In this document: positions 2,741 to 29,440 of the stretch, piece by piece
How positions within the stretch are numbered: position 1 is the first letter of the stretch
Layout: each line of letters begins with the position of its first letter
DNA from: Arcuatula senhousia
Lineage: Eukaryota; Mollusca; Bivalvia; Mytilida; Mytilidae
NCBI GenBank assembly: GCA_963971305.1
Contig: OZ020313.1
Coordinates: forward strand, 22,641,260-22,705,259
DNA length: 64,000 nucleotides
Reading direction: 5' to 3'
Program-made: the position numbers and the translations under genes
Notes under the pieces: model-generated
Told to the model about the DNA's origin: nothing
What the model saw: the letters and a program-made list of their open reading frames with translations, nothing else
The model's database searches: none

Positions 2741-2757
2741 TTTGTACTTTACATATC

Positions 2758-4410
2758 CTATACAATATATATCCCAATTGTATACATCATTAACACTTTT
2801 AACTCTATGTCTGATCTATCTATATCATGTTAACATCAACTTTGGTCATCTAAAACATCCACTCTAGTCTCTAGCATCATACACAATACTATACATATAC
2901 TGTACAATATATATCCCAATCATATACATCATAAACACGTCATACACTATGTCTGATCTATCTATATAATGTTAACATCCACTCTGGCCATCTATAACAT
3001 CCACTCTAGACTCTATCTTAATACACAATACTTTACATATACTGTACAATATATATCCCCATCATATACATCATAATCACTTCATACACTATGTCTGATC
3101 TATCTATATCACTTTAACATCCACTCTGGCCATCTATAACATCCACTCTAGTCTCTATCTTCATACACAATACTATACATATACTGTACAATATATATCC
3201 CCATCATATACATCATAAACACTTCATACACTATGTCTGATCTATCTATATCATGTTAACATCCACTCTGGCCATCTATAACATCCACTCTAGACTCTAT
3301 CTTAATACACAATACTTAACATATACTGTACAATATATATCCCCATCATATACATCATAAACACTTCATACACTATGTCTGATCTATCTATATAATGTTA
3401 ACATCCACTCTGGCCATCTATAACATCCACTCTAGTCTCTATCTTAATACACAATACTATACATATACTGTACAATATATATCCCCATCATATACATCAT
3501 AAACACTTCATACATTGTGTCTGATCTATCTATATTACATTAACATCCACTCTGGCCATCTATAACATCCACTCTAGACTCTATCTTAATACACAATACT
3601 ATACATATACTGTACAATATATATCCCCATCATATACATCATAAACACTTCATACACTATGTCTGATCTATCTATATCATGTTAACATCCACTCTGTCCA
3701 TCTATAACATCCACTCTAGTCTCTATCTTAATACACAATACTTTACATATACTGTACAATATATATCCCCATCATATACATCATAAACACTTCATACACT
3801 ATGTCTGATCTATCTATATAATGTTAACATCCACTCTGGCCATCTATAACATCCATTCTAGTCTCTATCTTAATACACAATACTTTACATATACTGTACA
3901 ATATATATCCCCATCATATACATCATAAACACTTCATACACTATGTCTGATCTATCTATATCACATTAACATCCACTCTGGCCATCTATAACATCCACTC
4001 TAGACTCTATCTTAATACACAATACTTTACATATACTGTACAATATATATCCCCATCATATACATCATAATCACTTCATACACTATGTCTGATCTATCTA
4101 TATCATGTTAACATCAACTCTGGCCATCTATAACATCCATTCTAGTCTCTATCTTAATACACAATACTATACATATCATGTACAATATATATCCCCATCA
4201 TATACATCATAAACACTTCATACACTATGTCTGATCTATCTATATCATGTTAACATCCACTCTGGCCATCTATAACATCCACTCTAGTCTCTATCTTAAT
4301 ACACAATACTATACATATCATGTACAATATATTTCAATGTCTTATACATCATAAACAATTAATACATTATGTCTGATCTATCTATCTATATCATGTTACA
4401 CAAAACTGTA
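2758..4410 (+). repeat. ~142 bp satellite array A (about 12 units)
   Basis: Direct repeats marked by CTATGTCTGATCTATCTATAT and CCATCTATAACATCCACTCT recur every 142-144 bases. It lies just past the stop codon of the transposase-USP gene. The unit nearest 4400 (variant TTAATACATTATGTCTG) is the inverted counterpart of the first unit of array B at 12825. Confidence 0.95.
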
Positions 4411-4505: not shown

Positions 4506-4601
4506 CTATTCGGTCACATACGGTCTCTTTAAAGTTCTATAAAATAACATTGTTGGTTGGCCATCAATTACACCAAGGAAACCTGTTGATAACTTTTGAA
4601 T
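4506..4601 (-). CDS. Exon 25 of transposase-USP gene: C-terminal exon
   Basis: Acceptor ctttcag; 31 codons then TAG. GQPTMLFYRTLKRPYVTE matches the final USP strand '(a)YlLfYr'. The protein ends a few residues after the USP fold. Confidence 0.87.
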   Translation of the reverse strand: MQKLSTGFLGVIDGQPTMLFYRTLKRPYVTE

Positions 4602-7600: not shown

Positions 7601-10600
7601 GTAATAATAAAAACTTGTTTCAAAAACTGATATAGATGCGCAACTGGCCTGGAAAGAAAAGACGCTTAATAACTCCATGGTAAAACTGTAGACCAGTAAA
7701 TACAATCTTAGGCCACACAGAATCATTGTTCTTATGATGTTTATATTTTTAAAAGGGAGGGAGCAAGCGAAATATTTTTTATTAATTTTTATTCTAATAT
7801 CCTCATTTATTTTAGGCCCGCGGCATGTTTTTAATTTAAAAAAATCACTATACAAATTTAAACAGTCTTTACTTTTCAATTTTGACATGAGGGCAATTGG
7901 AAGAACAATAAGTTCTGTCTGGCCTCTACTTAATGACTGGTCACCAGTCAATTATTTCTGACTTTGTAATATAAATCCTACCTAAAGCACAGGGAATATT
8001 AAGCTTTGCCTTATGAAAAGAAAATTTTGCAATATGTATTCAAATAATATTACATGCATGCAATTAACTTACATGAATATTGTAACTGGCCGTAGAAAAT
8101 CCGACGTTCATCACTCATGCAGGTTAATCTAAAAAAGGAATAAAATACTTATAGTACAACTAATAAGGAGGGGTGAATATGAATTTAAAAGTCAAAATTA
8201 TTGAATAAAGCCAGTATTCCACGAGTGTATGGTTTAAATATCATTTGTCATTTGAACTGCTTACTCTTCCAGAGCACCTGAGTTTACTCATTACTATTTG
8301 AGTTGATGTTGCTTGTTGTCATTCAGTTGTTTTTTTTTTTTTTGTAATTTTATGTTGTTTGTATCTTTGAATGTCTTTGTTGAACTCGTTTTCTGGTTTT
8401 GTCTTCAAAATTTCAGACTTGCCTCATTGCTTCTCTAAGGTATAAACTTACTTGTTAAAGCATTTGGCCTGTACTTCCTCCATGATTTTGGTGTACATTT
8501 CATAGGGGTCTTGTTGTTGACCAACTGTATAATTTGGCCACACCTCTATTATGATAAAAAAAACCACATTAATTACAAACCTGTGGCCATGTTCATATGT
8601 AAAGACATCATCATCATATTTTGTGTCAGGGTGAGTGCAATTAAACATATTAGCAATGATTCATAATCCTACAAACTCAGGCCAAAACAATGCAAAGCAT
8701 ATTTGTCCAACCATCACTAGGTTCCTACATTGCCTTTATTTAAGCATGGGACAATGAAACGCAAAAAAACGTAATAAAATCAATATTATTTCTGACAGAA
8801 TATAGTACATGTATATGCAGTTACAAGATAAAACAAGTCTAGATAATTTTGGATAATCTTAATGCATCTGTTATATCATGTCCATGTTGAATTAAAACAT
8901 TAACAGGCTAATAAAAAAATCCTAATATAAATTGTTTTCTTACTTGTCATTTTCTCACATAAAGGCTGTGCTGTAATTGGCCCCATTTCAAAAAATTCTT
9001 TTAGTCCACATGTAAAACAGAAATTATCTGAAATGGAAGAAAATAGATTATTTCCATGTTGAATGCATTAAAAACTTAAACAATTTCTTATTGCAAGCAA
9101 AAGAAGAAAAGCATTTTCTATACTACTAAAGAGCAGAATGCCGAGGAGACAAAATTCTAAGTTGGTTCAAAAACAGGAAGTATTGCAAACACATTACACC
9201 ATATGAGACCCCTACCTGAAGCTGTATACCAAATATCAATAGCCTACAATTAATAATTGCTAAGAAACAAGGGGTTGCACTTAGTTGTGCTAAGCATAAC
9301 CCCACTGAGCTGGAATGGGTAGGCACGGTACAACTCATCATGGTGAAGCTGTTTGATATCAATCCCTTTAGTAGAAGCTGAGATATTTTGTTTTACAAAA
9401 ACATTCCCATTGTTTACCCTTAAAAAGTCTAAGTTGGCTCAGAAAAGTTGTGTACTTCATCAATCCCTTCAGTAGAAGCTGAGAACAGAAAGACTGATAG
9501 AGGGACAAGGTGATTGCAATATAGCCCCCTTTCTTACAATTGGGGGTATAATATGTCCTTCCATTGAGCAAAGCAGGACATGGAAATGCTAGTCTACATC
9601 TACATGTATAAGTGCATCTGTCACAATTTTTTTCATATTTATCTGTTATAAAACTCTACAAGTAAAATTACAATAGCACCTAATACTGTCTTCTTTTGCT
9701 TTATAAAACTATTAACATGAAATATATGCAAGAAAGACATAATCCACATATTGGCAGGACATTGATAAATGTTAAAAACAAACTTTTCACTGTGTGTAAA
9801 GGGCTTTTCCGGATTAACCTTCATCACCAATAGGCCACAATACATACTTAAGCAAAAAAATAATAAAAAGAGAGGTGTCCATGGGACACGAATGCCCCCA
9901 CTGGCTCCCAATAAAAAGCTGAAGTCCAACAGGTCTTTAAGTCACTTAGGACATATAGTTGAAGTCCAACAGGTCTTAAAGTCGCTTAGGGCGTAAAGTT
10001 GGTCATGCTGAACCATCCCACATAGTTTCAAATCATTCCCATTTGCAGTTTCTGAGAAAAGCGTGACATAAATTTGGATGGAAGGACAGACATAATGCCC
10101 CCAAATATGTGGTTGCGGGGCATAAAAAGTATTATAACAACCCAATACTTAATGTCCCTTTATCAAACCTTTGCAGTTCTTGTGATGCTGCAGAACTTTA
10201 TGCATGTCTGCCAATCGAAGACACTGCAGTAAGGAATTGGCAAAACATAGATTCATTCTAGGGGGATTCAGTAGTCCACCTCCAGGGAATGGATCTAAAA
10301 AATAAACATTGGTACAAAATAAAATCCCCCCTTACTATGTAATTGACATTTATTGTTTTTTTTTAATTTCTTATAATTTTTCTTCTTCCACCTTGAAGTT
10401 ATTCATGTTGCAAAAATTGTATTTTTTCTGAAAATCTCTTAGTAATTGTGATTTTTTAAATTGCTGTTTGTTTATGTTAGTTGTGTCGTGTACATTTATT
10501 CCACATCTCAATATCGTCTATGCTCTGTGGGGATAATATTTACCTGGAGAACATTTTTTTAATTCAGCCATTTTTCTTTCTTTAAACTGCATGGCTTTTT

Positions 10601-13600
10601 CTGTGAATCTAACTTTTCCTAAAATAAAAACATAGGTAATCTATCGATTACAAAGCTCACCTCGTTGTGGCACTTGTCAATAAGCGTGAATGGACTTTAA
10701 CCATTTTTCTGAAGAGGTCATCCATGCAGAAAAAGTAGGTCACAGCCTGCATCTGAAGCATGCATTGTGTTTTATCAGTAATTTGTACATTTTTCCTTTG
10801 ATGTGTACTGGCTGATAAAGTCTGTCTCACGAACAGGTGTGTATCACCGAAATTATCGGGTCAGTACGTTACGTCACAATTAATTACCCATAAAGAGAAT
10901 ATGTTTCTTCGGGTTCACCAAAACAAGTGATAAAATCGATCTCAAAATAAACTAGAAAAACTGTGAGCCGCAGCTCACAAATAAATACCCCCCACCCCCC
11001 CAAAACATTAATCAGATAAAATTTAGAATAGGAGATGCACATCTACATTATGTCAAAAAGATTGTGTGTAAGTTTCATGAAAATCCATCAATGGGTTTAG
11101 GAGGAGTTGTGGATAAGAGATGGGTACCCCCATGTAGTCTATGGCTTAGTCCATGTCTTGGTATAGAAAACCCTAAAAAGCGGGAATGGACTTTAACCAT
11201 TTTTCTGTAAGTGGTCATTCATTTGGAAAATATAGGTCACATCTAGCATTCGAAGCATGCATGGTGCTTAGCATCACTATGTGCATGTACCATGCCAATA
11301 TGATTGATGTGGCACTTGTCAATATCCGTGTATGGATCTTAACCATTCTTTGGTATGTGGGTGCGGACTCCAACACCAGGGGTATCATATAAGCCCCCCT
11401 CACTTTCGTGAGGTGAGCTAACAAAAATACAATGTATAAGTGTATTGCAAAGTTCTGTCCTTCCTGTATTACCTGAAAAAGTCTATATCTCCTTGAATAA
11501 AAAAATATGTATAATGAATATGCCACTATATCCTAATATACACTTGAAATAAATTATTTTAAATTGTCTAATTGCAGTACCTTCACCATATGCAAGCAAA
11601 AAATCAGTTAAATGATTCTACCGACGAAAGAAGAGTTATATGTGTGTTTTCATAAATAACACAATGATTGTATTAAATTAAAATATGATTTTATTCTCTA
11701 CAATCAATAATTACCTGGCTTATCATTCTTATTTTTGGATACTCCTGACAATGCTGAAAATAAAATCAAATATGAATAAACAGTCGGCCAAAAGTTAAGC
11801 ACCAGCACAATTTAAAATAGCACCCTTGTTTCCTATGTTATTGAAAGATTCTGATCTTTTGCATATAATAACCTTTTGAAAATTAGAACAGTTTTGCATC
11901 TAATAAAAAGTGAGAATAAAGATACATTTTGAAAACATTAATGCCTTATATCGAGTGATTTTACCCAATTCTGAATTCAAGTTTAAGAGAGCAAAAAAGC
12001 AAAAGAATAATTCAGGCAAATCTTGGTGTCAAAGAATCTAACACATGACAACTCTTTGAAATGGTGTGTTGCCAGTCGTGAAAACAAAAAATGAGAAGAT
12101 TCAATGGTTTTTGCAGTTTTGGGGACCTGCCAAAAAATGTCTGCTTTTTCCTGACTTTCCGGCCACGTGGATTTTCAAATGCTTGATTTTTCTAAAATAT
12201 GCATGGAAATAAATATGTTACTAATGGATGATGTAAGTTTGGTTTGTTTTAAAGATTCATCAGAAAAATTAGGCGGAAAAAAATTATTTTCAGGATTTCT
12301 AGAAAACGCTGTCATCTGCTATGGAAACCACTTGGCATATCACAAACCATAGAGGAAATTGGAAATACATTTTACCTGTTTGTAATCGGTCTTTAATCAT
12401 TTTTTCTACTTTCGCTTGTCTAACCCTGGGATCAGCATCTCTGGGAATCAATACATCTCCTTTTTCAACTACAATGATAAAGTATGATCATAATAATTAA
12501 AGTGAACAATATCAGACAAAACCATGACAGAAATTTTATGGTTGCAATGATAGATTGACACTGACTGTTGTAAAATAGTTAGTTTATTTCTTTATTCTTT
12601 ACTCTCTTAAAGTTCAGTCTTTCAGCACCATTTAACATAACAATTGTTTTTTTTACATCACTTGGAAAAATAAATCAATAATAGTAAGAGTACATTGGTA
12701 AACTTGAACATGTTCAAGTATTTGCAAGCATATAATATATAATGAGGTGATATATTGAGAACACATTTCAAGAAATATACAAAAGAATAACTTAAAATTG
12801 ATGGTGTAGTGATTAACGTGTCGGGCTAGATAGATCAGACATAATGTATTAATTGTTTATGATGTATAAGACATTGAAATATATTGTACATGATATGTAT
12901 AGTATTGTGTATTAAGATAGAGACTAGAATGGATGTTATAGATGGCCAGAGTGGATGTTAACATTATATAGATAGATCAGACATAGTGTATGAAGTGTTT
13001 ATGATGTATATGATGGGGATATATATTGTACAGTATATGTAAAGTATTGTGTATTAAGATAGAGTCTAGAGTGGATGTTATAGATGGCCAGAGTGGATGT
13101 TAATGTGATATAGATAGATCAGACATAGTGTATGAAGTGTTTATGATGTATATGATGGGGATATATATTGTACAGTATATGTAAAGTATTGTGTATTAAG
13201 ATAGAGTCTAGAGTGGATGTTATAGATGGCCAGAGTGGATGTTAACATGATATAGATAGATCAGACATAGTGTATGAAGTGTTTATGATGTATAAGACAT
13301 TGAAATATATTGTACATGATATGTATAGTATTGTGTATTAAGATAGAGATTAGAGTGGATGTTATAGATGGCCAGAGTGGATGTTAACATGATATAGATA
13401 GATCAGACATAGTGTATGAAGTGTTTATGATGTATAAGACATTGAAATATATTGTACATGATATGTATAGTATTGTGTATTAAGATAGAGACTAGAGTGG
13501 ATGTTATAGATGGCCAGAGTGGATGTTAACATGATATAGATAGATCAGACATAGTGTATGAAGTGTTTATGATGTATAAGACATTGAAATATATTGTACA

Positions 13601-16600
13601 TGATATGTATAGTGTTGTGTATGAAGATAGAGTCTAGAGTGGATGTTATAGATGGCCAGAGTGGATGTTAACATTATATAGATAGATCAGACATAGTGTA
13701 TGAAGTGTTTATGATGTATATGATGGGGATATATATTGTACAGTATATGTATAGTATTGTGTATTAAGATAGAGTCTAGAATGGATGTTATAGATGGCCA
13801 GAGTGGATGTTAACATGATATAGATAGATCAGACATAGTGTATGAAGTGTTTATGATGTATATGATGGGGATATATATTGTACAGTATATGTAAAGTATT
13901 GTGTATTAAGATAGAGACTAGAATGGATGTTATAGATGGCCAGAGTGGATGTTAACATGATATAGATAGATCAGACATAGTGTATGAAGTGTTTATGATG
14001 TATAAGACATTGAAATATATTGTACATGATATGTATAGTATTGTGTATTAAGATAGAGACTAGAGTGGATGTTAATGTGATATAGATAGATCAGACATAG
14101 TGTATGAAGTGTTTATGATGTATATGATGGGGATATATATTGTACAGTATATGTAAAGTATTGTGTATTAAGATAGAGTCTAGAGTGGATGTTATAGATG
14201 GCCAGAGTGGATGTTAATGTGATATAGATAGATCAGACATAGTGTATGAAGTGTTTATGATGTATATGATGGGGATATATATTGTACAGTATATGTAAAG
14301 TATTGTGTATTAAGATAGAGTCTAGAGTGGATGTTATAGATGGCCAGAGTGGATGTTAACATGATATAGATAGATCAGACATAGTGTATGAAGTGTTTAT
14401 GATGTATAAGACATTGAAATATATTGTACATGATATGTATAGTATTGTGTATTAAGATAGAGACTAGAGTGGATGTTATAGATGGCCAGAGTGGATGTTA
14501 ACATGATATAGATAGATCAGACATAGTGTATGAAGTGTTTATGATGTATAAGACATTGAAATATATTGTACAGTATATGTATAGTATTGTGTATTAAGAT
14601 AGAGACTAGAGTGGATGTTATAGATGGCCAGAGTGGATGTTAATGTGATATAGATAGATCAGAGATAGTGTATGAAGTGTTTATGATGTATATGATGGGG
14701 ATATATATTGTACAGTATATGTATAGTATTGTGTATGAAGATAGAGTCTAGAGTGGATGTTATAGATGGCCAGAGTGGATGTTAACATTATATAGATAGA
14801 TCAGACATATTGTATGAAGTGTTTATGATGTATATGATGGGGATATATATTGTACAGTATATGTATAGTGTTGTGTATGAAGATAGAGTCTAGAGTGGAT
14901 GTTATAGATGGCCAGAGTGGATGTTAATGTAATATAGATAGATCAGACATAGTGTATGAAGTGTTTATGATGTATATGATGGGGATATATATTGTACAGT
15001 ATATGTATAGTATTGTGTATTAAGATAGAGACTAGAGTGGATGTTATAGATGGCCAGAGTGGATGTTAATGTAATATAGATAGATCAGACATAGTGTATG
15101 AAGTGTTTATGATGTATATGATGGGGATATATATTGTACAGTATATGTAAAGTATTGTGTATTAAGATAGAGTCTAGAGTGGATGTTATAGATGGCCAGA
15201 GTGGATGTTAACATGATATAGATAGATCAGACATAGTGTATGAAGTGTTTATGATGTATAAGACATTGAAATATATTGTACATGATATGTATAGTATTGT
15301 GTATTAAGATAGAGACTAGAGTGGATGTTATAGATGGCCAGAGTGGATGTTAACATGATATAGATAGATCAGACATAGTGTATGAAGTGTTTATGATGTA
15401 TAAGACATTGAAATATATTGTACAGTATATGTATAGTATTGTGTATTAAGATAGAGACTAGAGTGGATGTTATAGATGGCCAGAGTGGATGTTAATGTGA
15501 TATAGATAGATCAGAGATAGTGTATGAAGTGTTTATGATGTATATGATGGGGATATATATTGTACAGTATATGTATAGTATTGTGTATGAAGATAGAGTC
15601 TAGAGTGGATGTTATAGATGGCCAGAGTGGATGTTAACATTATATAGATAGATCAGACATATTGTATGAAGTGTTTATGATGTATATGATGGGGATATAT
15701 ATTGTACAGTATATGTATAGTGTTGTGTATGAAGATAGAGTCTAGAGTGGATGTTATAGATGGCCAGAGTGGATGTTAATGTAATATAGATAGATCAGAC
15801 ATAGTGTATGAAGTGTTTATGATGTATATGATGGGGATATATATTGTACAGTATATGTATAGTATTGTGTATTAAGATAGAGACTAGAGTGGATGTTATA
15901 GATGGCCAGAGTGGATGTTAATGTAATATAGATAGATCAGACATAGTGTATGAAGTGTTTATGATGTATATGATTGGGATATATATTGTACAGTATATGT
16001 ATAGTATTGTGTATGAAGATAGAGACTAGAATGGATGTTATAGATGGCCAGAGTGGATGTTAACATGATATAGATAGATCAGACATAGTGTATGAAGTGT
16101 TTATGATGTATATGATGGGGATATATATTGTACAGTATATGTATAGTGTTGCCAATGATGATAGAGTCTAGAGTAGATGTTATAAAAGGCCAGAGTTGAT
16201 GCTAATGGGATATTGTATATGAAATGTTTATGGTGTATGTGACAATGAAAAATGTCATATGATATGTAGAACCCTACAATGATAGGTACATGTAGATTTG
16301 CAGTAGATAAAATCAAGTGATGATGGCATTCAATCCTATCAAGATTTGTAATGATTTGCCCTTACCAGCAGCCCTGAGAACATCATTGGATGCATCCGCT
16401 GTTTCTTCTGGTTCCAGTATCAGTTCTTCACCAGTTAGTTCCTGTACCACTTCTACTGTTGAAGACTGTCCTGAAAATTACAGTAATTACAAAATCATGC
16501 TGTATATCTTTACTTTTGTAAAGTAATTAATTTTCTCAGGAGCTAATTTTCATGAATTCTTCACATAATGTCATTTTGCAGGCAATAATTTTTGTGGTTT

Positions 16601-19600: not shown

Positions 19601-22600
19601 TGAACATATCTACAAGTATAAACAAGGAATATTGATAGAAATTCAGAACCTCCCAAACAAACATTATAAACATAAAGAAGATATTTTGTCCTCTTTATCC
19701 TATTATTGATTTTTAAATTTTTCTATGAGGAAATTGGCAATGTGAGCAAAATAAAGTACTGGTATCAATGCAAATGGGGGTATAACATCAGATGCCTAGC
19801 TATTATACTTTTTGAGCAATTCATTGTCCAAAAGAGTCTTACAAAAAATGTTTACACCACCGCTGCCGGAAAGGAATACCTATGTCTTGCCTTCCGCAAC
19901 TTTTTGTCGCAGGCGAGACAAAAAAATAGAGTGTCTGTATACAACAGATTATAGAAGATACATAGAGCAGTAAAGGATTTAGTCATAAGGGGGAGTTAAG
20001 CCAATTTTCCTCAGCCATCTATGTGCTTTATGATTATGAATTTATGATGATAAATATGTTAAAAACTTTCAGGCCGTTTCAATTTACACAATCTTACAAA
20101 GGCCATGAATCAGTTTACATTTTACCTTTGCATGCAGTCAGGAAAATAACGATTCACAATTATGTGAACAAGTTGGCTTATTGTCTGGCTTCTCTTGTAC
20201 CCAATGGACCATAGGTATCCATGTTTGAGATTCCCATTCTGCCGTTCTATACCATTGGTGGTGTTGATGGCATTAACCCTGTCTTGTCGGTACATCTTAA
20301 TCCATCTCTGTGAGAAAAAAAAAACTAATTAAGCAAACCTAAATAATCAAGTAACTATAATACATAGAGTGTCTGCATGTGGAGTCGTACACTTTTTAAG
20401 GTTTTTACTTTTAAAGTGTCAATGACAATTGTTAATCAGTTTCAATGTTTTTTAAAATATAGAGATAAACAAGAAATGTGTGTTTTCAATATAGTTTTGA
20501 AAAAAACACTGTTTATTTTTAATTTTACTGATTACTTTCTTAAAGTAACAAAACATGTAAAATTGCTAAAAATGGTACATGGATTCGTACACCCAAATAT
20601 TTTGCAAATTATCATTCAATTCTTCTCCAGTTCTATAGAGGTTGAAAAACAATCATTTCAATGACATTTTGATACTATTTAGTTATCAAAGATTTGTTGG
20701 ATGACAAAGTGTCTGTTGGTTTATCAGTATGCATTTGTACGGCAGTTTTGACCAACAGTAAAAATGAGTAAAATTTTTTTTGAGCATAGATACTGAAACC
20801 ATGATCGAAACTTTTGACTATATGAATGGAAAGTAATTGAAATAATACTGTTATGCAATTTCCAAGTGATATCGAATCTAACCTTAAACAAAAAAGGTGT
20901 TGTATCAGGTTTAGTTTTGCATCTTTGTCAATAGAGGGTCCCGGAACTTAATAATATTGAAATTGTAATTATTTGCAAGAAATATTCTTTAAAATGTTTC
21001 AATAAATCTGTTTGTCAAATCATTTCATTTAGTGCTCAGTAGATACAACAGTTTGTATAGCAAAATAAAAATTGTATTCGACATCTTTGAAAATCAAGTT
21101 GTCAAATTTAATTTGTAAACGAACATTTTTGTCTCGCCTGCGACGAATGTCGCAAAAAGCGAGACTTAGGTATGGTGATTCCGGCGGCGACGGCGACGGC
21201 GACGGCGACGGCGGCGGCGGCGGCGTCCACAATTGGTTAAAGTTTTTGCTTAAGTCTGTTTTATGTGAACTAGTTATGTTACACCATTGATATTTGGTAT
21301 GCAGTTGCATCAGCATCAGTACAGATCAGTTTTAAAAGGATTTCACCTGTATGCTCCTGCAGTCACGGTCTACTGACTTTGAAATTGTACACTGATTTGG
21401 CCGAGGTTAACCTTATTTCTTAAGTCTGTTTAACATGAAGCAGTTATGTTACACCATTGATATTTGGTATGCAGTTGCATCAGCATCAGTACAGATCAGT
21501 TTTCAAAGGATTTCACCTGTATGCTCCAGCAGTCACGGTCTACTGACTTTGAAATTGTACACCGATTTGGCCGAGGTTAACCTTTTTTCTTAAGTCTGTT
21601 TAACATGAAGCAGTTATGTTACACCATTGATATTTGGTATGCAGTTGCATCAGCATCAGTACAGATCAGTTTTCAAAGGATTTCACCTGTATGCTCCTGC
21701 AGTCACGGTCTACTGACTTTGAAATTTTACACTGATTTGGCCGAGGTTAACCTTTTTTCTTAAGTCTGTTTAACATGAAGCAGTTATGGTACATCATTGA
21801 TATTGGGTATGCAATTGCATTAGCATCAGTACAGATCAATTTCAAAAGTATTTTGTCTGTATGATCCTGCAGTCACAGTCTACTGACTTTGAGATTTTAC
21901 ACTTTTTAACTTTTTACTTATGTCACGAGTGTTTTTTATAAAGCAGTTATGGTTCACCATTTATATTTGGTATGCAGCTGCTTAAGCATTAGTTAAGATC
22001 AGTTTAAGGAGGATTATTACTTCATTTTATACTGTGTCCAGTTGCGACAGGCGAGACATGTCTCTGTGTTAACAGTTTATTATGATTTGGTATCTTTTAC
22101 ACATAAAAATATTTTAAATAACCCTATGGAAACAGAAATATTTTTCTTAAATGCGACATAATGTGCCCCAATATTTTCAGTGTTTAAACTAGAAGACATC
22201 TGTTTCAGATCACAGTTCACTTAATGAGCCTGGTTTTCAATGTAAATAAATCTTACTATTTACCTTTTTTTTGTCCAAATAATGTTTCTGGAACCAGGTT
22301 CTAAGGTTTGAATTCTTCTTCCATTCTTCTTCATTGAATAGCACTTCAATATTTCTCTTGAGTTCTCCTTCGTCTTCCGATTCTGCAACCCTTTTCATGC
22401 TGTTTAAAAGAGGACTCTTCTGTGTTGGCTGCACTCCATGGATAGTGGCATTAACCCATCGGTTCCAGGCCTGTAGGCGATGAAAGTCGCACAGGAATAC
22501 AAAAGTCCCTACATCTGAAAAAACAATTATATAAAATAATAACGTAAGATGTTATCTAACGTATTGTGTCAACCAGAGTGTGTGTATGAAGGACAACAGA

Positions 22601-25600
22601 ATGTCATACATGATGAAGTTACATTTGGCAGTAAAATATGGACCTTAACCAAACAACAAGAACTAAACTTAATTTGACATAGCATAAAATATAGGGAAAA
22701 ATGACCTACTGGTCATATACATCATTAATGTTGTTCGTATATTATAAAAAATATGACACTTTTGTGGGACATCTTTGTATTACATTCTATCATTATGGCT
22801 GTTTTAGATGTTTCATTATTATAGCTTTTCGTTTGTGTTTTTCACTTTGTTTTATTGGTATCAGGAAAACTAACACATGATATAAATGGATGGTAATTAC
22901 TTTATCTGACTGATTTCTCATGAAACTATTATTGTAATAAACTTGATACAGTTGTTGTGAATCAACCACAGACAGTTTTAATTTGCAATTTTGTAGTTAT
23001 AATGTTGGCCACTAAACTTTCAGTTAATTTCTGTTCATTTTGTACATTTTCAAGGAACAATCGATCATACATGTTTATTCACTTCTATTCAGTCTCTTCC
23101 TTGTCTTAGTGCCATGCAGGTGTTTCTTTTCTTCTCCCTGTTTTAATTGCCCTTGAAGAAGGTCTTTTGACCGAAAGTGCTCGGGCCCCTCTTTCATTTT
23201 TCATTTGATTTAAGCGATATGTTTTTGTGTGTTTATAATGTGATTTTACCTTTTAACCTTGTGGCGTACCTGACTTTTAGTATTGTATTGATTTTTAATT
23301 CTGCCACACAGGAACTCCTATTATTATAGATCATACATGTTGTTTACATACATTGATGACATTTAGTCGTGTTTTCAGTCGATGATACATGTAGCCAGAT
23401 TTGGCTTCCTAATAGTTCAATTTTAGCAAATTACTAAAATTTGCTTTCCTGACATTTGGCATCATTGTATGAAATTTACACATTTACATGGACATGAAAA
23501 TGTACTGATAATTCTGTATTATTTTTTTTTTCAAAATTTATATGGATTCTGCATTAATACCTCTAAAAGTTGTCTCCACAGACTGTATCTCCTGTTCACT
23601 GTAATCGGTCATGAAATATCTTGGCTTCCATTCTGGAGTCCATTTTCTGATTACCTTGAGGGCTTCAGAAATAGCTTCTGTGCTTTCTACTTCAACGATA
23701 AAGCAGGCAACTACAATGTAATGCACATTGGTAGGGACAGCCAAAAGGAACAACGGAAGAGAGTATTTACTCGTTCTGTATGTGGCATCAAGCAAAACAA
23801 GTTCTTGTCCATAGCGAAGAAGAAGTCTCTGCTGCCAACGTGTCATATGGACATACAAGAATGAACTCTCTTGTTGACCTAAGTTGTGTATTATATTGTC
23901 ACTATCACAGTCTGTATATTGTTCTGTATTTGCCTGAGTAGCATTTGACTTCCTCCTGTACTCTATGAAGTCATCTGTAGTATCTTGCCATTTCAGAACC
24001 ATTTCATGCAGTTGGTCTTGATCCATGGCACTGTCTCTGCAAATGATAAAACATTTTGTAACTTTAATCAATTATTACACTATGACAGTAGTCTTAGTAT
24101 TGTTCCAATGTTCAGCTTTTCAATACAACAGAAAACGCATGTCACATATTCAATACTATCTAAATTATGTTAAGGATCATCTATGCACTTTGTCTCTTTA
24201 AAGGTGTCAATTTACATATGTAGTATAGCCATATAACTATCCATATTTTACAATGCATATTGCTCACAGCACCCGGGTATACTATCTCAATACATTATTA
24301 ACACAAATTTCTCTTCTCCATACAATTATTTTGCACTTCATTTTACCCAATGCATAAAATCAACCTTTTGAGTGAGAGCTATACTAAACATTGTAAGATT
24401 TACATTTAGTAGATTTAGAATAACATTTTTACTGAGATAAGTGTTGTAGTCTCTTTGATATGTTCCCATATTTTAGTTTATTCCCACATAAATAAAATAC
24501 AGAAATGTATAATACCTGCAATGCATGGTTGCTTGAACCATATGATTTCTTATTTGGGACAGTGTTGGGAAGAATCGTGTGTTGTGTCTTGCTGGTAATC
24601 TTTTTCCTTGAAAAAGATTAGTCTTTACATATTCTTCACACAACAGTTTCATTTCCCGGCTACTGAACACACTCTCCTCTTTTACTTTTTGGTGAATGTA
24701 TTCAGACAACCTCTTATCGATTGTCTGAACACTAGTTGCCATCTGAAAAGATACAAAAGACAAAAAGTTGATACTGGAACAATTTCTAAGTCCTACACCT
24801 ATGATTGTAAATTTGAAACTTTCTTTTCAAAAATGCACATTCAAGTCAACATAAAAATGTTTTCAAATTATTTTTCAAATGATTTCTGTAATACTAAAAG
24901 TTGCCTTGTCTATTTCATTCAAATATAATAATAATAATAATAACTAGCAATAATTTGTGTTGGGATGCCAACACACAAGTTGCCCAAAATCGCCTTGGAT
25001 AGTATTTCTTTCAATTCAGATCAATAAAGTATGCCTAGAAAACAAAATTCATTGAAATCAGACAAAAACCTTCAGTCCAGGTGAGCTAACAAAAAAGATA
25101 TTCCTGCACATCTTTATATGGTGTAATATTACATACCAAGTTTCATAAAATTTTATTTAGTAGTACACAAAATTTTGAAAAGATAGGTTATTTAAAAAAA
25201 ACCTTTTGTACGGAAGAAAAGAATAATGAAAAAAACAAAGAAAAACAATAAAGTTTTTTTCATTTCATGGAAAACACTTTAATTTAATAATAATTAAACT
25301 CTCATAAGGCAGTTATTGCAATTTTAAATTATTGTTACTATCACAACACTGTCAAACACAGGATTAATTGCAGATATTTTGGGACAGATGTACAAACTTT
25401 GGCCAAGTAAGCTTCAAATCACTAAGTACACAAACCTGTCCCTCAATATGGTTTGTATGCTGTGTAGACAGCTCAACATGGTACTGGTGCTCAAGGACAA
25501 TATCATCTTGGTTCTTCATAGCAGACTTGAGCTGTGCTGACATGGCACTCATTCCATGCTTGTTGTTCATATCATGGACCTATAAATATACACAACTTAG

Positions 25601-28600
25601 CCAACACTTTTGTACAGAAAAGGTGGTTACAACATACAACTATTGCTCTTTTTCTGCCAATAATACTTAGTTGCTTGCCTATCTTTTTGGACCTTAGAAA
25701 ACACATTTTGGGTTTTTTTTTTTTAATAAAACAATTTGCACAAGACCTTAACATAATTGATATATGATTTTTTTACATATCACACTTGTTATTACTTTTG
25801 AGAAAAGCAACAAATTTCTAATGCATTCCTTTTATTTAATTTAGCAATAGTATTTCAATATATAAATCAAAATATATCATGAATATAATATTTAAAGTAG
25901 GAATTAAAAAGAGGAGTGTAGTACTTTCATCTATCTCAGGACCAGTCAAGATTGAATGGTGCTATGAACATTGTTATAGCGATTAGTCTTTTATGAGGTT
26001 ATGCTATACTTTATAGGTTTATTAAGCGTTTAATTTAGCGTCAAATGTTTTTGTTTATAAATTTCCTGTCAATTCCTGTCGGTAATTTACAAAATGGAAA
26101 TATTTTTAATTTTCCTCCAGCACATATAGCTAAATGGTGTCTGATGCAAATGTTCCTGTATTCCGATTGGTGTACTTAATGTTTGTGCATCCTTACTCTT
26201 TCGCAAAAACTATTTCCCATTTGTCTATTGTAATTTCACTTGGGTTTGGGCAAGTTATGCAGTATAAATGATTTTCTGATTTACAATGTACATGTTATAT
26301 TAGCAATCATTTTAAATATCTTTCCATTCTTGTTTCATTTGACCCTCTTAGGGCATAACTCGCCCAAAGGGCAATGCAGGTCAGTAAAAGTCCAATATCT
26401 CAGAAATGGAAATAGTGAATGCTTTAAAAGAAGTGATGCTAGTCAAACCTTAAATCCTGGAAACTTTACAATATGTCTTATGTAAAGCTTTGCTTGACAG
26501 TCCAACTTTCTGGTTGTTTGTACAAGCCTTCTCCTTTTTACACTGTAACTATGCTCTTCATCCTGTATTACATAATAATGACAATAGAAAAATACATATA
26601 TGTGATGCAGGAAAATCACCCTTATGGGTAGTCATTTATTAGGCATTTCTTGACTTCAACTAGAGTACTGACAAATTCAGGAAGGACCCAGCAGGAATTT
26701 AATAAAAATGTTTTTAAATTTATCGAACTAATAAACATATAATTTTAATATGCAAATCTTGATATGCTACACAGAAATGGTACAAAATTTCATTACTATT
26801 AATAGGTTTTGAGTTTTAGTGTTCTCAAAATTTGTGACTTTTCTATCAAACATGTCAAAAATGAAATTTTTTTCCAAAAATTATCTCACGGACTACATTT
26901 GAAGCATGAAATTTTACTATGCAAATCATGACAAGCTTACAAAACTTCAAATCCGTATTATTAATAGACTTGGGTTTTAGTGTTCACAAGAATTGTTGAC
27001 GGACGGACAGACAGACAGACAGACAAAGTGAAAACTATAGGCCAATAGGGCATCCACATCTTAAATGAGGGGCCCTAAATATCTTATTTGAACATAAGAA
27101 CACAACAAACTAGCACATAAACTGGGTAACATAGTTTGATTTCTGAAACAGCAATTTGATCTTTTTCAATTGTTAAGTTTTCATAACACTATCACTGTAA
27201 CACTGAAGTTATAATATTATATTATCACAGGCACGGATCCAAGGAAAGGCATACCAGGCCTACGCCCCCACTAAAACCGGCAAAAAATGTTTTTTGTATA
27301 AAATCAACATCCTAAAACACTAAAAATCATTTCGCGCCTCGCTTGACGCTCAGCAAAATTTTCTGTCAAAAAAATCCCCCCAACCTGAAATCCTGGATCC
27401 GCTCCTGTATCAACAAACTCAAGTTTATTTGTTTGTAAAAGTATTCCACTTTTATCTAACCTTTTTTTTATTTTGACGTTCTTTCCTTTCTTTTCCTCTT
27501 CTTCCATCATAGTTTCTACCATGCTGGCAGTCCATGACACGGGTGCCCATTATGATGAATGGAATGCCATCAAATACAATGTTTGGATGGGCCTCTTTCT
27601 GGACATCATACCAGTGTAGTTTCCCTTCATATTTCTTCAAGTCTATATAAACATGATATAATAAAAAAAAAGGTCCATAGGGCCTATATTGCTCACCTGG
27701 GATTCCAACTAAATAACCATTAAAGGGCACCCATTTGACCTAAAATTTTGCACAGTTTAGCTTTGCAAGAAAAGTGTAAATTTGTAAATAACAAACTCCT
27801 ATTTAAAAGGGCAATAATTCTCCTATTATTTGTCTGATTGGCACATTGATAGGTCAAATTTTCTTCTTACATTTATTATTTATCTCCTTTCATTAATAGC
27901 CTTGAAAAGTATAAAATTGGACAATTTGACATTTTAAGGGCAATAATGCCTACTACATATTACAGCGGTAGTCAGATCATAACAAAAATCTGCACACTAG
28001 TTGATCTTATTGTGATGAACATTTTTACCTTATGTCTGAAATTTTATATGTGCTTTTGTTTTCAAGTTATTTGCAAAAATCTACTCTGACCCAATGTTCT
28101 ATTTATAGTAATGGCAGCCAACTTTCAATCAATAGAAATGTTCCAAATGCCCTAAAGAACAATTCTTTTTTAAGTTTGGTTGAAATCGATCTAGTAGTTT
28201 AGGAGGAGTTAGCGTTTTAAGTTTAGACAACAGGCGACGGACACCAAGTGATGGCAATAGCTAACATGGCTTTTGGGCCACATGGGCTAAAAAGGAGCAT
28301 CAGTAATTATAAAATGTACAGGTCTACTATAAGTATTACATTACTATTCATCAGTTAAGCATCAATATTGTTTGATCTTTATTCATACCTAAATAAACCT
28401 AAATTTGTTGTGCTTAAAATGTTTTACCCGTAATTGTCTGATATAATTTATAAAGTTCCTTCTCTTCATAATAACAATTAGAAATCCCTAATACCTCCAG
28501 TAACATGATTAACAAACCCATACTGTGAAAGTATTAATATAAGAGAAGCATTATGCTTGTTTCCCATTCCAGGATAAATAAATATGTTTTAAACAAAAGT

Positions 28601-29105
28601 ATTAATATTCGTGGGGTACCATTTTTCATGATTTTCGTGGATGAGACAAAGCACGAAATTAAATTCCCAACGAACAAAAAATTTTACATTGCTTTTGATA
28701 GAAAATCAGATTAAACCACAAATTCATGAATTCAGTAATATGCCAATCTACAAAATTAAAACCCATGAATTATAATACATACTTTCACAGTATTATATTT
28801 TCAATATGTGCTTTTAGTTATTGTTCATTCATATAACTTAATTGATGAGCTCATCTAAAGTATATTCATAGAAGAATATGTATTCACACTGAGGACAAAA
28901 AATTCAAGTACAAATCAACCGATGATAGTAATTGTGAATTCTATAATTACCAATAGAGCCACCAAAATCTTTCCTGGTACGGTGTATTATAAAGCGGGAG
29001 AATGTGGCAAGTTCAAACTCTGTTACCAATTCCCTAAGGTCTTGCAGGCTGCTGACAAAGCCTGTAAGGTCAGTTGAATGACTTTTAAATAGATGGATCC
29101 AAGAA
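4506..29105 (-). CDS. CaRF/MULE transposase - SWIM - ubiquitin-specific protease fusion (23 joined exons)
   Basis: Joining exons 29105-28951, 27642-27461, 25579-25436, 24742-24516, 24036-23561, 22514-22264, 20307-20126, 19609-19135, 18502-18250, 16470-16366, 12468-12376, 11753-11715, 10618-10544, 10294-10169, 9027-8944, 8545-8452, 8128-8073, 7598-7525, 7194-7127, 6781-6704, 6077-5993, 5093-4971 and 4601-4506 gives one frame of about 1180 codons; every junction is GT-AG with matching phase. Numbering below assumes two tentative 5' exons (1202 residues). Residues ~24-260 resemble CaRF/ALS2CR8. The DDE core has D342 (LLDATY), D403 (FMTDYS), C426/H429 (CDFH) and E522 (NGIERQN). SWIM: C644, C646, C656, H658. 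USP: C925 (NLCFANSLLQCL), QQQDPYEM 988-995, zinc cysteines 1031/1034/1074/1077, H1153 (TGHYIT), D1168/D1169, C-terminal LFYRTL. All catalytic residues are present. Inferred: a transposase that also cleaves ubiquitin or a ubiquitin-like modifier. An exon between 27461 and 25579 may be missing, because the CaRF region shows few of its usual cysteines. Confidence 0.85.
4971..5093 (-). CDS. Exon 24 of transposase-USP gene: USP His box
   Basis: Acceptor ataacag, donor AAG-gtttgt; exactly 41 codons. YDL-like HKLDLFGVVIHKGQTLS, then TGHYITLVK with the catalytic His and WYRVDDMK with the catalytic Asp. Confidence 0.9.
5355..5875 (-). repeat. Nested repeat of the GACTCGCCTGCGA family (inverted to 43475-44500)
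   Basis: In the intron between exons 23 and 24. Two or three diverged units contain GAAAATCAAGGTCAAGGTCA and CTTATAGTTCTTGAGA, the inverse of the units at 43560-44400. The left edge TTAACACTAAAGTATGTCTC matches the inverse of 44495-44520. Confidence 0.75.
5993..6077 (-). CDS. Exon 23 of transposase-USP gene
   Basis: Acceptor tttgtag, donor GGG-gtatgc; phase 0 at the end. Encodes FTNARKKVMKKIDLHLNLNL then RQYVVENG, matching USP 'RF.....kk.....v..p..L.l..y'. Confidence 0.83.
6704..6781 (-). CDS. Exon 22 of transposase-USP gene: second zinc-binding Cys pair
   Basis: Uses the acceptor tttccacag; the later ttgtag acceptor would create a stop codon. Donor AG-gtatat. CCRKNTEHSRLLQLKSVPKN then LVLNLNR matches USP 'C..C......k...i..lP..L.i.lkR'. 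Confidence 0.85.
7127..7194 (-). CDS. Exon 21 of transposase-USP gene
   Basis: Acceptor ttgcag, donor TG-gtaaag. HQTLSQCLEEHFSEEKVDKT matches USP 'sL.dcL..ff..E.l......C', leading into the second Cys pair. Confidence 0.85.
7525..7598 (-). CDS. Exon 20 of transposase-USP gene: first zinc-binding Cys pair
   Basis: Acceptor attacag, donor AAG-gtaatt. SCKTCGSKSNSTAPFTDLPL matches the USP 'C..Cg..s...e.f.dLsl.i' block, giving the first Cys pair of the fingers subdomain. Confidence 0.85.
8073..8128 (-). CDS. Exon 19 of transposase-USP gene
   Basis: Acceptor tttttag, donor T-gtaagt. Encodes LTCMSDERRIFYGQLQYS. The segment IFYGQLQYS fits the 'f.G.l.s.i.C..C' strand just before the USP zinc ribbon. 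Confidence 0.8.
8452..8545 (-). CDS. Exon 18 of transposase-USP gene: USP QQD box
   Basis: Acceptor tagag, donor AA-gtaagt. VGQQQDPYEMYTKIMEEV is the USP QQD box (family: G.QQDaxEfl..ll..l), which helps hold the ubiquitin tail. Confidence 0.88.
8944..9027 (-). CDS. Exon 17 of transposase-USP gene: USP N-terminal lobe
   Basis: Acceptor tttcag, donor A-gtaaga. Encodes DNFCFTCGLKEFFEMGP and on to EKMT. The FCFTC stretch matches the 'H..C....FC..C' insertion seen in USP17/36/42-type proteases. Confidence 0.8.
9125..10130. repeat. Composite repeat in the intron before exon 17
   Basis: Contains a local duplication (GAAGTCCAACAGGTCTTTAAG near 9920 and again near 9960) and the end GGTTGCGGGGCATAAAAAG. 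No coding potential recognised. It appears to be a nested insertion in the giant element. Confidence 0.5.
10169..10294 (-). CDS. Exon 16 of transposase-USP gene: USP Cys box
   Basis: Acceptor tttttag, donor AAG-gtttga. GGGLLNPPRMNLCFANSLLQ then CL is the USP Cys box (family form: GLxNxGNTCyxNsxLQcL) with the catalytic Cys and the upstream Asn of the oxyanion hole kept. HHKNC follows, as in USP17/36/42-like enzymes. Confidence 0.88.
10544..10618 (-). CDS. Exon 15 of transposase-USP gene: linker before the USP domain
   Basis: Acceptor atttag, donor CAG-gtaaat; phase 1 on both sides. Encodes GKVRFTEKAMQFKERKMAEL and KKCSP. Confidence 0.78.
10955..11412 (+). repeat. Dispersed repeat (related to 46870-47240 and 49170-49515)
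   Basis: Starts CTGTGAGCCGCAGCTCAC, itself palindromic, and ends CGTGAGGTGAGCTAAC. It contains TTAGGAGGAGTTG and GATGGGTACCCC, which recur at 46990-47030 and, inverted, at 49200-49250. Confidence 0.7.
11715..11753 (-). CDS. Exon 14 of transposase-USP gene: 39-base linker exon
   Basis: Acceptor ttttcag, donor G-gtaatt; phase 1 on both sides. Encodes ALSGVSKNKNDKP. Short, but the phase fits both neighbours. Confidence 0.7.
12376..12468 (-). CDS. Exon 13 of transposase-USP gene: basic linker
   Basis: Acceptor attgtag, donor G-gtaaaa; phase 1 on both sides. Encodes VEKGDVLIPRDADPRVRQ followed by AKVEKMIKDRLQT. Confidence 0.78.
12825..16250 (-). repeat. ~142 bp satellite array B, inverted relative to array A (about 24 units)
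   Basis: Units marked by GATAGATCAGACATAGTG and GGATGTTATAGATGGCCAG recur every 142 bases and are the reverse complement of array A. Two unit types alternate (TATGATGGGGATATATATTG and TAAGACATTGAAATATATTG). It fills most of the intron between exons 12 and 13 of the transposase-USP gene. The last units, beyond 16140, are decayed. Confidence 0.95.
14390..16090. repeat. 852 bp higher-order repeat (2 copies) in array B
   Basis: Marker variants recur 852 bases apart, i.e. six 142-base units: CAGAGATAGTG at 14661 and 15513, CAGACATATTG at 14801 and 15653. Surrounding unit types follow the same order in both copies. Confidence 0.85.
16366..16470 (-). CDS. Exon 12 of transposase-USP gene: acidic linker
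   Basis: Acceptor ttttcag, donor G-gtaagg; phase 1 on both sides. Encodes an acidic run containing LTGEELILEPEETADASND. The intron after it holds the large satellite array. Confidence 0.8.
16471..18249. other. Intron 11 of the transposase-USP gene
   Basis: No coding exon seen. Bases ~17935-18025 hold a dispersed repeat tail with GACGGACAGACAGACAAACG and GAGGGGCTCT, also present at 26800-27075. Confidence 0.5.
18250..18502 (-). CDS. Exon 11 of transposase-USP gene: linker
   Basis: Acceptor ttttcag-type (gtttcag), strong donor TCAG-gtaaga; 84 codons plus one base. Encodes a probable helical segment (VEALQRQLRFVLKHCENL) and a basic end (RKGSRKTAAAKS). No known domain recognised. Confidence 0.82.
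19135..19609 (-). CDS. Exon 10 of transposase-USP gene: SWIM zinc finger
   Basis: Acceptor cttgtag, donor GAT-gtaatt; 158 codons. SCQCVDWKRHHFPCKHLL gives C-x-C-x9-C-x-H, a canonical SWIM zinc finger, expected C-terminal to a MULE core. An acidic tail (CLNDEVENTLDDNIPDD) follows. Confidence 0.9.
19835..19925 (+). repeat. Solo end of the GTCTCGCCTGCGAC repeat family
   Basis: Ends TTTGTCGCAGGCGAGACAAA after a short body with CACCGCTGCCGGAAAGG. It matches the inverse of 21128-21185 and lies in the intron before exon 10. Confidence 0.7.
20126..20307 (-). CDS. Exon 9 of transposase-USP gene: catalytic Glu
   Basis: Acceptor ctcacag, donor AAG-gtaaaa; 60 codons plus 2 bases. INTTNGIERQNGNLKHGYL matches the 'TNN.vErqN..fK..yL' block that carries the catalytic Glu of MULE-type transposases. 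Confidence 0.88.
21131..22057 (+). repeat. Non-autonomous element with GTCTCGCCTGCGAC ends and internal ~175 bp tandem units
   Basis: Left end GTCTCGCCTGCGAC, right end TTGCGACAGGCGAGAC (inverted). Inside are a (GGCGAC)n run at ~21182-21222 and four or five tandem units marked by ACACCATTGATATTTGGTAT and GTCACGGTCTACTGAC, decaying toward the right. It is nested between exons 8 and 9. Confidence 0.85.
22264..22514 (-). CDS. Exon 8 of transposase-USP gene: CDFH motif
   Basis: Acceptor ttttcag, donor AAG-gtaaat; ends in phase 0. Begins DVGTFVFLCDFHRLQAW, the MULE C-x2-H motif followed by a conserved QAWxRW. A charged helical stretch follows. Confidence 0.88.
22515..23560. other. Intron 7 of the transposase-USP gene
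   Basis: No exon or clear element end seen. Contains the text CTTGAAGAAGGTCTTTTGACC typical of dispersed repeats, but the edges are not resolvable by eye. Confidence 0.4.
23561..24036 (-). CDS. Exon 7 of transposase-USP gene: MULE DDE core, both Asp residues
   Basis: Acceptor tttgcag, donor G-gtatta; 158 whole codons. Contains SAMDQDQL, then VLLDATYRTSKYSLPLF with the first catalytic Asp, and RYFMTDYSEQEI with the second. The spacing and the hydrophobic strand between them are those of MULE transposases. Confidence 0.9.
24516..24742 (-). CDS. Exon 6 of transposase-USP gene: end of CaRF-like region
   Basis: Acceptor ttttcag, donor AG-gtatta; 75 codons plus 2 bases. The block LPARHNTRFFPTLSQIRNHM matches the conserved nRRFyPt..dIrNHm segment of CaRF/ALS2CR8 and related MULE proteins. 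Confidence 0.85.
24940..25095 (-). repeat. Inverted fragment of the repeat that ends at 34750
   Basis: AATTTGTGTTGGGATGCCAA, then CACACAAGT and AAAATCGCCTTGGATA, is the inverse of 34690-34746. A fragment of the repeat that hosts the giant element therefore also lies inside it. Confidence 0.7.
25436..25579 (-). CDS. Exon 5 of transposase-USP gene
   Basis: Acceptor tttatag, donor CAG-gtttgt; exactly 48 codons, phase 0 at both ends. Contains STQHTNHIEGQ, the His-rich segment found before the 'nRRFyPt' block in CaRF-like proteins. Confidence 0.8.
26800..27080 (+). repeat. Dispersed repeat tail with CAGA run
   Basis: Contains GACGGACGGACAGACAGACA and GAGGGGCCCTAA, shared with 17935-18025. Lies between exons 4 and 5. 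Confidence 0.6.
27461..27642 (-). CDS. Exon 4 of transposase-USP gene: CaRF-like core
   Basis: Acceptor tatatag, donor AAG-gttaga. Completes an Asp codon and encodes LKKYEGKLHWYDV to a lysine-rich end, with DGIPFIIMGTRVMDCQHG typical of CaRF-like proteins. Ends in phase 0. Confidence 0.8.
27671..28290 (-). repeat. GCTCACCTGG-family element, inverted copy
   Basis: Left end TTGCTCACCTGGGATTCC, right end GGCCACATGGGCTAAAAA. The GACGGACACCAAGTGATGGC segment near the right end corresponds to the start of the copies at 35223 and 52874, inverted. Nested in intron 3. Confidence 0.7.
28521..28792 (+). mobile_element. MITE with TACTGTGAAAGTAT inverted ends
   Basis: Perfect 14-base inverted ends, TACTGTGAAAGTAT at 28521 and ATACTTTCACAGTA ending at 28792. 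The body GTGGGGTACCATTTTTCATG is shared with the elements at 39506 and 61149. Confidence 0.8.
28951..29105 (-). CDS. Exon 3 of transposase-USP gene: start of CaRF-like region
   Basis: Acceptor tttcag, donor G-gtaatt. Fifty-one whole codons, starting SWIHLFKSHSTDLTGF and ending TRKDFGGSI, phase 1 at the 3' end. The TRKDFG motif begins the CaRF/ALS2CR8-like region. Confidence 0.8.
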
Positions 29106-29159
29106 CTGAAAAATATTATTCTAAAGTTAACATTACAATTCTTTCATAATATTTCCAAT

Positions 29160-29440
29160 ATGCATATATAACAAAATTAATACTCAAGTGGATGTTATAG
29201 GGTACCAGAATGGATGTCGGTTTTGTCTGTAGACTTCAATAGTAAGAAAGATAAGAAGAACTGATTGAGTTAAATTAATCGTTATACAATACTCAAGTGA
29301 ATGTTATATTGTACTGGAGTGGATGTCAGATTTGTCTGTAGACTTTAATGACTAGTAAAAATAATATTAAAAATAATATTTTTATGTAATTATAACATGG
29401 TTACTCATTTGGAGAGAAGTTACCCATTTGGGTAACTATT
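29160..29440 (+). repeat. Short diverged duplication
   Basis: ACTCAAGTGGATGTTATAG and ACTCAAGTGAATGTTATAT, ~110 bases apart, each followed by TTTGTCTGTAGACTT. The GTGGATGTTATAG core resembles the 142 bp satellite. Confidence 0.6.

What the first reader, a model, noticed from the sequence alone, without database searches (positions are those of the whole stretch)
4506..29105. MULE transposase fused in one frame to a complete ubiquitin-specific protease
Seen: 23 GT-AG exons with matching phases give one open frame that carries MULE D, D, E residues, CDFH, a SWIM finger and then a full USP fold with Cys, QQD, zinc-ribbon and His boxes, ending normally. Known: plant Kaonashi MULEs carry a Ulp1-like SUMO protease, and CaRF/ALS2CR8 proteins are relatives of MULE transposases; I know of no described MULE-USP fusion. 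Inferred: the element may remove ubiquitin from its own transposase or from host repair or silencing proteins. No stop or frameshift was found, which suggests recent activity or selection.
Basis: partly seen in the sequence, partly recalled or inferred. Interest (0 to 1): 0.93.

Follow-up and report, generated by a model that had tools for sequence, protein, structure and literature searches.

The report
Bivalve transposase-deubiquitinase fusion gene
A mollusc genome, probably a bivalve's, carries a gene that joins an enzyme descended from a jumping gene to an enzyme that removes ubiquitin; scallops appear to carry the same combination, while oyster relatives have a SUMO-type protease in that place.

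Summary
The fusion is real as a gene model and recurs elsewhere. On the minus strand 25 GT-AG exons (29061-28951 to 4601-4506) splice into one open frame of 1,226 codons plus stop; the 5' start exon was not found. The product has CARF/ALS2CR8, MULE, SWIM and complete UCH (USP) domains with catalytic residues kept. Argopecten irradians has an annotated protein of the same architecture; a Mizuhopecten model runs from the MULE half into the USP Cys box, then ends. Of 41 MULE-type relatives fetched, 2 carry USP sequence; two oysters, Mytilus, a hemichordate and Hydra carry Ulp1-type proteases instead. Scallop and oyster linkers are homologous, so the protease seems exchanged on one scaffold; the window's own linker shows no such likeness. 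'Recent activity' is not supported: 24 introns, no convincing TIRs, 38-45% identity to the scallop protein. A resident gene is likelier, though DDE is intact and copy number could not be tested. MULEs with Ulp1 or OTU are in print; ten full-text searches showed no MULE-USP fusion. New variant of a known kind; transcript and function untested.

The parts
4506..29061 (-). whole gene model, 25 exons, 1,226 codons plus stop, 5' start exon missing
   Evidence: Pfam
24516..29061 (-). exons 1-5: CARF/ALS2CR8 region (Pfam match at residues 45-256)
   Evidence: Pfam 1.5e-36; tblastn with P0001-P0003
20126..24036 (-). exons 6-8: MULE RNase-H domain, D342 (23789-23787), D403 (23606-23604), CDFH, E520 (20247-20245)
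   Evidence: Pfam MULE 8.4e-10, ZSWIM1-3 RNaseH-like 5e-10; residues; tblastn 4.8e-38
19135..19609 (-). exon 9: SWIM zinc finger
   Evidence: Pfam SWIM 1.5e-5
18250..18502 (-). exon 10: helical end of the MULE half; Priapulus P0003, without a protease, ends shortly after this segment
   Evidence: alignment
10544..16925 (-). exons 11-15: linker between the halves; not significantly similar to the scallop linker; RVxF-like GKVRF at residues 908-912
   Evidence: 552 and 86 of 1000 shuffles as high
4506..10294 (-). exons 16-25: USP catalytic domain, C949, QQD, zinc ribbon, H1177, D1192, and the stop codon
   Evidence: Pfam UCH 1e-29; USP36 nearest solved chain 1.1e-21; residues
12827..16325 (.). 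142-bp tandem array (24 copies) inside intron 12, between the two halves
2668..4385 (.). 142-bp tandem array (11.6 copies), inverted relative to the other and about 91% alike, 121 bp beyond the stop codon

Best explanation
This is an old bivalve gene descended from a CARF-type MULE transposase whose C-terminal protease is a ubiquitin-specific protease, where relatives carry an Ulp1-type protease. Shown: one open reading frame with all catalytic and zinc residues; the same fusion annotated in Argopecten and, up to the QQ box, in Mizuhopecten; the Ulp1 alternative in two oysters (and, weaker, in a Mytilus model); homologous linkers in scallops and oysters. Inferred: the CARF/MULE/SWIM part binds particular DNA and the USP removes ubiquitin from proteins at those sites. 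The likeliest substrates are chromatin or repair proteins such as ubiquitylated H2A/H2B (nearest solved chains: USP36, then 6tbm_Q, which I recall as the SAGA subunit Ubp8); removal of ubiquitin from the protein itself is possible too. It is more likely a resident low-copy gene than a mobile element still moving.
For: Open frame and domains. P0001 Argopecten irradians, 1,094 aa, E 1.1e-183, precomputed ALS2CR8+MULE+ZSWIM1-3+UCH; P0005 Mizuhopecten LOC110447122 continues into the USP Cys box. USP halves: window vs P0001 90 identities and 108 mismatches, score 476 against a shuffled mean of 32.8; vs P0005 45 and 33; 0 of 200 shuffles as high in either. Window USP scores 187 bits against P0001 and 66 against the Haliotis USP48-like P0004. 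Both USPs have USP36 as nearest solved chain (1.1e-21 and 6.9e-12). Ulp1 instead of USP: PF02902 at or above its cut-off in 6 of 42 proteins scanned (P0006 Ostrea, P0028 Saccostrea, P0040 Mytilus, P0041 Ptychodera, P0012 and P0030 Hydra). Scallop vs oyster linker: 0, 1, 0 and 0 of 1000 shuffles as high in the four pairs. MULE tree: the window and ten rows, seven of them named bivalves and three unnamed, form one side of a branch at 100/99.
Against: No transcript was seen. The window linker is not significantly similar to the scallop one, so continuity across exons 11-15 rests on splice sites, phases and the scallop models. The tree does not join the three USP rows directly: window+P0001+P0005 as one clade has p-AU 0.023; with P0020 (unnamed, 117 residues after SWIM) added it is 0.216. 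The solved-structure match to Ubp8-like 6tbm_Q (3.8e-20) is nearly as good as that to USP36. Low copy number is inferred from a capped listing; the window's own genome could not be searched. A fully kept D-D-E would also suit a transposase still in use.
Confidence: 0.62

Rival explanations
1. Two neighbouring genes in one orientation, a MULE-derived gene and a USP gene, that gene models and phase-compatible introns run together.
For: The linker is long and not measurably conserved between window and scallops; a 3.4-kb satellite array lies in intron 12; exon 10 meets a stop at 18233-18235 if its intron is retained; there are in-frame ATGs before the USP.
Against: The same order, strand and frame are annotated in Argopecten and, in part, in Mizuhopecten. 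Oyster relatives on a linker homologous to the scallop one also run into a protease in one protein. All phases match across exons 9-16.
Confidence: 0.17
2. An autonomous MULE, still mobile or lately so, that carries a USP to protect its transposase or to loosen host silencing at its insertion sites.
For: DDE, SWIM and USP residues are all kept. Hydra relatives form 11 of the 40 listed clusters, with up to 24 member sequences (isoforms may be among them). An 84-bp inverted repeat, 1-81 and 31445-31528, 85.7% alike, brackets the whole gene. A MULE review lists minisatellites near the ends of some Phantom and Rehavkus elements (PMC6446971, passages read).
Against: 25 exons over 24.5 kb; only one entry each listed for Argopecten and Mizuhopecten; the 84-bp pair may be a dispersed repeat, and its left copy is cut by the window edge; two other bracketing pairs are only 61-63% alike, and the window is rich in inverted repeat pairs.
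Confidence: 0.18
3. The USP was joined to the MULE independently in scallops and in this lineage.
For: p-AU 0.023 against window+P0001+P0005 as one clade; the window linker is not alike.
Against: The USP domains are about 45% identical to each other, far nearer than to P0004, and both are nearest USP36 among solved chains; one clade is not rejected once P0020 is included (p 0.216).
Confidence: 0.12

Closest known systems
Kaonashi (KI) MULEs / KIU genes of plants
   Same: MULE that carries a cysteine protease of the ubiquitin-like system (Ulp1/C48) (PMC6117577, PMC2528002, PMC13317346: passages read).
   Different: Plant elements, many copies, Ulp1 not USP; in KI-MULEs the protease lies in reverse orientation or in a separate gene of the element.
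CARF-MULE proteins with Ulp1 in oysters and Hydra (P0006, P0028, P0007, P0012), and shorter models of Mytilus P0040 and Ptychodera P0041
   Same: Same MULE-type scaffold with a protease at the C end; for the oysters a linker homologous to that of scallops.
   Different: Protease is C48 (in several Hydra proteins with a C-terminal PHD), not USP. The models differ in completeness: P0028 and P0041 show no CARF match, P0040 no SWIM match.
MuDR-6_HM of Hydra
   Same: A MULE listed with an ovarian-tumour (OTU) gene, another deubiquitinase class (table passage in PMC6446971).
   Different: OTU fold, not USP; not compared here by sequence.
CaRF/ALS2CR8 and ZSWIM1/3
   Same: Pfam domains ALS2CR8 and ZSWIM1-3 RNaseH-like are present.
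   Different: No protease in those named host genes (recalled).
USP36
   Same: Nearest solved structure of the USP half, 1.1e-21; 6tbm_Q follows at 3.8e-20.
   Different: USP36 has no transposase domain (recalled).

Membership tests
MULE transposase | RNase-H-like core with D, D, E | tested here: met
   Pfam MULE 8.4e-10; D342, D403, E520
MULE transposase | CxxH motif and SWIM finger | tested here: met
   C424/H427; SWIM 1.5e-5
MULE mobile element | terminal inverted repeats | tested here: inconclusive
   best bracketing pair 84 bp, 1-81/31445-31528, left copy cut by the window edge; others 61-63% alike
MULE mobile element | 8-11 bp target-site duplication | not testable with these tools
   if the 84-bp pair marks the ends, the left end lies outside the window
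MULE mobile element | several copies in the genome | not tested
   The genome search not answered
USP (peptidase C19, UCH) | Cys box, QQD, His box, Asp | tested here: met
   N947, C949, QQD1015, H1177, D1192; UCH 1e-29
USP (peptidase C19, UCH) | zinc ribbon, two CxxC pairs | tested here: met
   C1055, C1058, C1098, C1101
USP (peptidase C19, UCH) | cleaves ubiquitin | not testable with these tools
   needs an enzyme assay
Ulp1-type MULE (Kaonashi-like) | Peptidase_C48 domain | tested here: not met
   no PF02902 match in the window product at E up to 1 (draft) or 0.01 (model)

The most novel reading that the evidence does not exclude
MULE-derived proteins of animals use a C-terminal slot for proteases of the ubiquitin family, and lineages have exchanged the enzyme in that slot (Ulp1 in oysters, Mytilus, Hydra and a hemichordate; USP in scallops and this species) on one conserved DNA-binding scaffold. 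They thereby made sequence-targeted deubiquitinases or deSUMOylases out of a transposase.
Probability: 0.4. Interest if true: 0.8.

Novelty: new variant of a known kind. Interest (0 to 1): 0.66.

Why it matters
Ulp1 in plant MULEs was reported in 2006 (cited in PMC6117577) and a 2026 review still calls its precise function unknown (PMC13317346, passage read). Finding Ulp1, and in its place a USP, on related animal MULE scaffolds suggests that control of a ubiquitin-like modifier is what matters, not one protease family. That makes a direct test possible: same scaffold, two enzymes, compare substrates.

Tried and rejected
Rejected: (1) chance assembly of exons: unspliced tblastn finds both halves. 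(2) Window linker homologous to the scallop linker: I thought so from the alignment, but shuffles do not support it (552 of 1000 for P0001, 86 of 1000 for P0005; the five linker exons alone 333 to 1719 of 2000). (3) A PP1-docking RVxF motif conserved in linkers: seen in window, P0001, P0005, P0028 and P0040, but the pattern also turns up in 12 others of the 43 proteins scanned; kept only as a lead. (4) Viral carriers: 18 pattern matches in viral contigs, none a relative. (5) First-draft exon ends at 27696, 19080/18603 and 10279 were replaced by 27642, 19135/18502 and 10294, and exon 10618-10544 was added, by eye after comparison with P0001 and P0002; for exon 10618-10544 the later shuffle test gives no support. 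(6) A USP-only search of residues 965-1260 of the first 1,266-residue draft scored no hit among 764 candidates and missed even P0001, so that tool's misses say little. (7) Literature: ten searches; beyond the papers named in the report I saw listings only, among them PMC6207730, PMC7368280 and PMC3774672, which I did not open.

Full report
What was checked. The minus strand from 29600 to 4300 was translated in three frames and splice sites were scored with a general metazoan matrix recalled from memory. A first joined draft of 1,266 residues already gave ALS2CR8, UCH, ZSWIM1-3 RNaseH-like, MULE and SWIM above Pfam cut-offs. After comparison with relatives the model has 25 exons, all introns GT-AG, phases matching throughout, 1,226 open codons and a TAG at 4506. 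Pfam on this final model: ALS2CR8 1.5e-36, UCH 1e-29 over profile positions 8-254 of 254, ZSWIM1-3 5e-10, MULE 8.4e-10, SWIM 1.5e-5. The catalytic triads and zinc ligands of both enzymes are present.

Is it one gene? Searching about 5.8 billion proteins with the draft gave four hits at E up to 0.001 among 3,290 candidates. The best, P0001 of Argopecten irradians (1,094 aa), carries ALS2CR8, MULE, ZSWIM1-3 and UCH in one protein; its UCH match stops at profile position 163 of 254, as the gene model ends there. A profile search (A1, four rows) gave 40 hits at E up to 1e-10 among the 7,988 candidates scored. Among them P0005 of Mizuhopecten yessoensis runs from the MULE half into the USP Cys box and ends after VGQQ in the gene model. 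Pfam does not list UCH for P0005, but its USP start has 59 identities and 19 mismatches to that of P0001. Comparing the window USP with all 42 fetched proteins finds P0001 (187 bits), P0005 (88) and the plain USP48-like P0004 (66) and no others at E up to 0.01. So 2 of the 41 MULE-type relatives carry USP sequence, both scallops. These are annotation-based gene models, not transcripts that I saw.

What sits there in relatives. All 42 fetched proteins were scanned with Pfam. Peptidase_C48 reached its cut-off in 6: Ostrea edulis P0006 (39.5 bits against 20.7), Saccostrea cucullata P0028 (38.1), Ptychodera flava P0041 (67), Hydra P0012 (23.1) and P0030 (21.3) and Mytilus coruscus P0040 (21.1, marginal, in a model without SWIM). 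Hydra P0007 was below (18.7). P0041 has SWIM and C48 but no CARF or MULE match; P0028 has no CARF match. By likeness to the tail of P0012, seven more Hydra proteins carry the same protease region at E under 1e-50 and P0014 weakly (1.7e-14). Seven Hydra proteins show a PHD finger (P0007, P0008, P0012, P0016, P0017, P0025, P0030), one of them above cut-off (P0016). In the three Hydra tails printed the HW and Q-Q-Q-x-N-G-x-D-C-G signatures of Ulp1-like proteases can be read directly (recalled as signatures). The other relatives, many of them fragments, show neither protease. The scallop linkers are alike to the oyster linkers (scores 81, 67, 86, 61; 0, 1, 0 and 0 of 1000 shuffles as high), so scallop USP and oyster Ulp1 follow a shared linker start of about 47 residues. 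The window's own linker shows no significant likeness to any of the four linkers compared (552, 86, 975 and 56 of 1000 shuffles as high).

Tree. On the MULE columns a 19-row tree puts the window with ten rows (seven named bivalves, three unnamed) at 100/99 and beside P0020, an unnamed protein, at 95/95. Holding window, P0001 and P0005 as one clade is rejected at p-AU 0.023; with P0020 included it is not (0.216). P0020 has 117 residues after SWIM, so its protease is unknown. A 42-row quick tree (P0004 dropped, window added) gives the same grouping at 99 with Mytilus P0040 added, and warns of long branches; the 19-row tree left out 23 of those 42 rows, P0040 among them. One origin of the fusion is therefore possible but not shown by the MULE tree; the USP domains themselves (about 45% identical; 187 bits against 66 to P0004; both nearest USP36 among solved chains) favour it.

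Mobile or resident? The gene spans 24.5 kb, with repeats in at least 10 of 24 introns. Inverted pairs that bracket it: 1-81 with 31445-31528 (85.7%, E 5.8e-16, left copy cut by the window edge), 863-1083 with 42924-43146 (61%, 3.3e-5), and 4253-4388, part of the satellite array, with 29086-29217 (63%, 0.002), plus weaker ones. None is convincing as a TIR. The two 142-bp arrays, inverted to each other and about 91% alike, enclose the USP exons; they could in principle let that segment flip. Copy number in the window's genome could not be tested. I lean to a resident gene (about 3 to 1).

How it may work. From the parts: CARF, RNase-H and SWIM regions give DNA binding, and the USP gives removal of ubiquitin near the bound site. 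Substrates are guesswork; USP36 and Ubp8 activity on H2B is recalled, not tested. Self-stabilisation is the main alternative.

What is known. Plant KI-MULEs/KIUs with Ulp1 (PMC6117577, PMC2528002, PMC13317346; passages read) and a Hydra MULE with an OTU gene (PMC6446971; table passage read) show the kind. The main text of PMC6446971 holds none of the words ubiquitin, protease or peptidase. PMC10027918 (passages read) reports MULE-derived FHY3-type factors in molluscs, without the word ubiquitin. Ten full-text searches, five of them with ubiquitin or USP terms, showed no MULE-USP fusion in their listings; subscription papers and preprints were not covered.

Noticed in passing
2668-4385 and 12827-16325: 142-bp tandem arrays, inverted to each other and about 91% alike, enclose the USP exons; recombination between them could flip the USP half. 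A weak match to the same unit lies at 29086-29217, just before exon 1.
   Followed up: partly
1-81 and 31445-31528: 84-bp inverted repeat, 85.7% alike, bracketing the whole gene; possible TIR or dispersed repeat, left copy cut by the window edge.
   Followed up: partly
10613-10611 (exon 15) and linkers of P0001, P0005, P0028, P0040: RVxF-like PP1-docking motif (pattern recalled) before the protease; P0028 also has SILK before it. Chance matches are common.
   Followed up: partly
45859-46377 and 47960-48550, + strand: Two C1q-domain open frames (Pfam 4.6e-19 and 2.9e-19).
   Followed up: no
59079-59834, + strand: C2H2 zinc-finger open frame of 252 codons.
   Followed up: no
61789-63999, - strand: Open frame of 737 codons reaching the window edge, no Pfam match at 0.01; unidentified.
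   Followed up: no
Hydra proteins P0007, P0008, P0012, P0016, P0017, P0025, P0030: MULE-SWIM proteins followed by an Ulp1-like protease region and a PHD finger, in clusters of 2 to 24 member sequences.
   Followed up: partly
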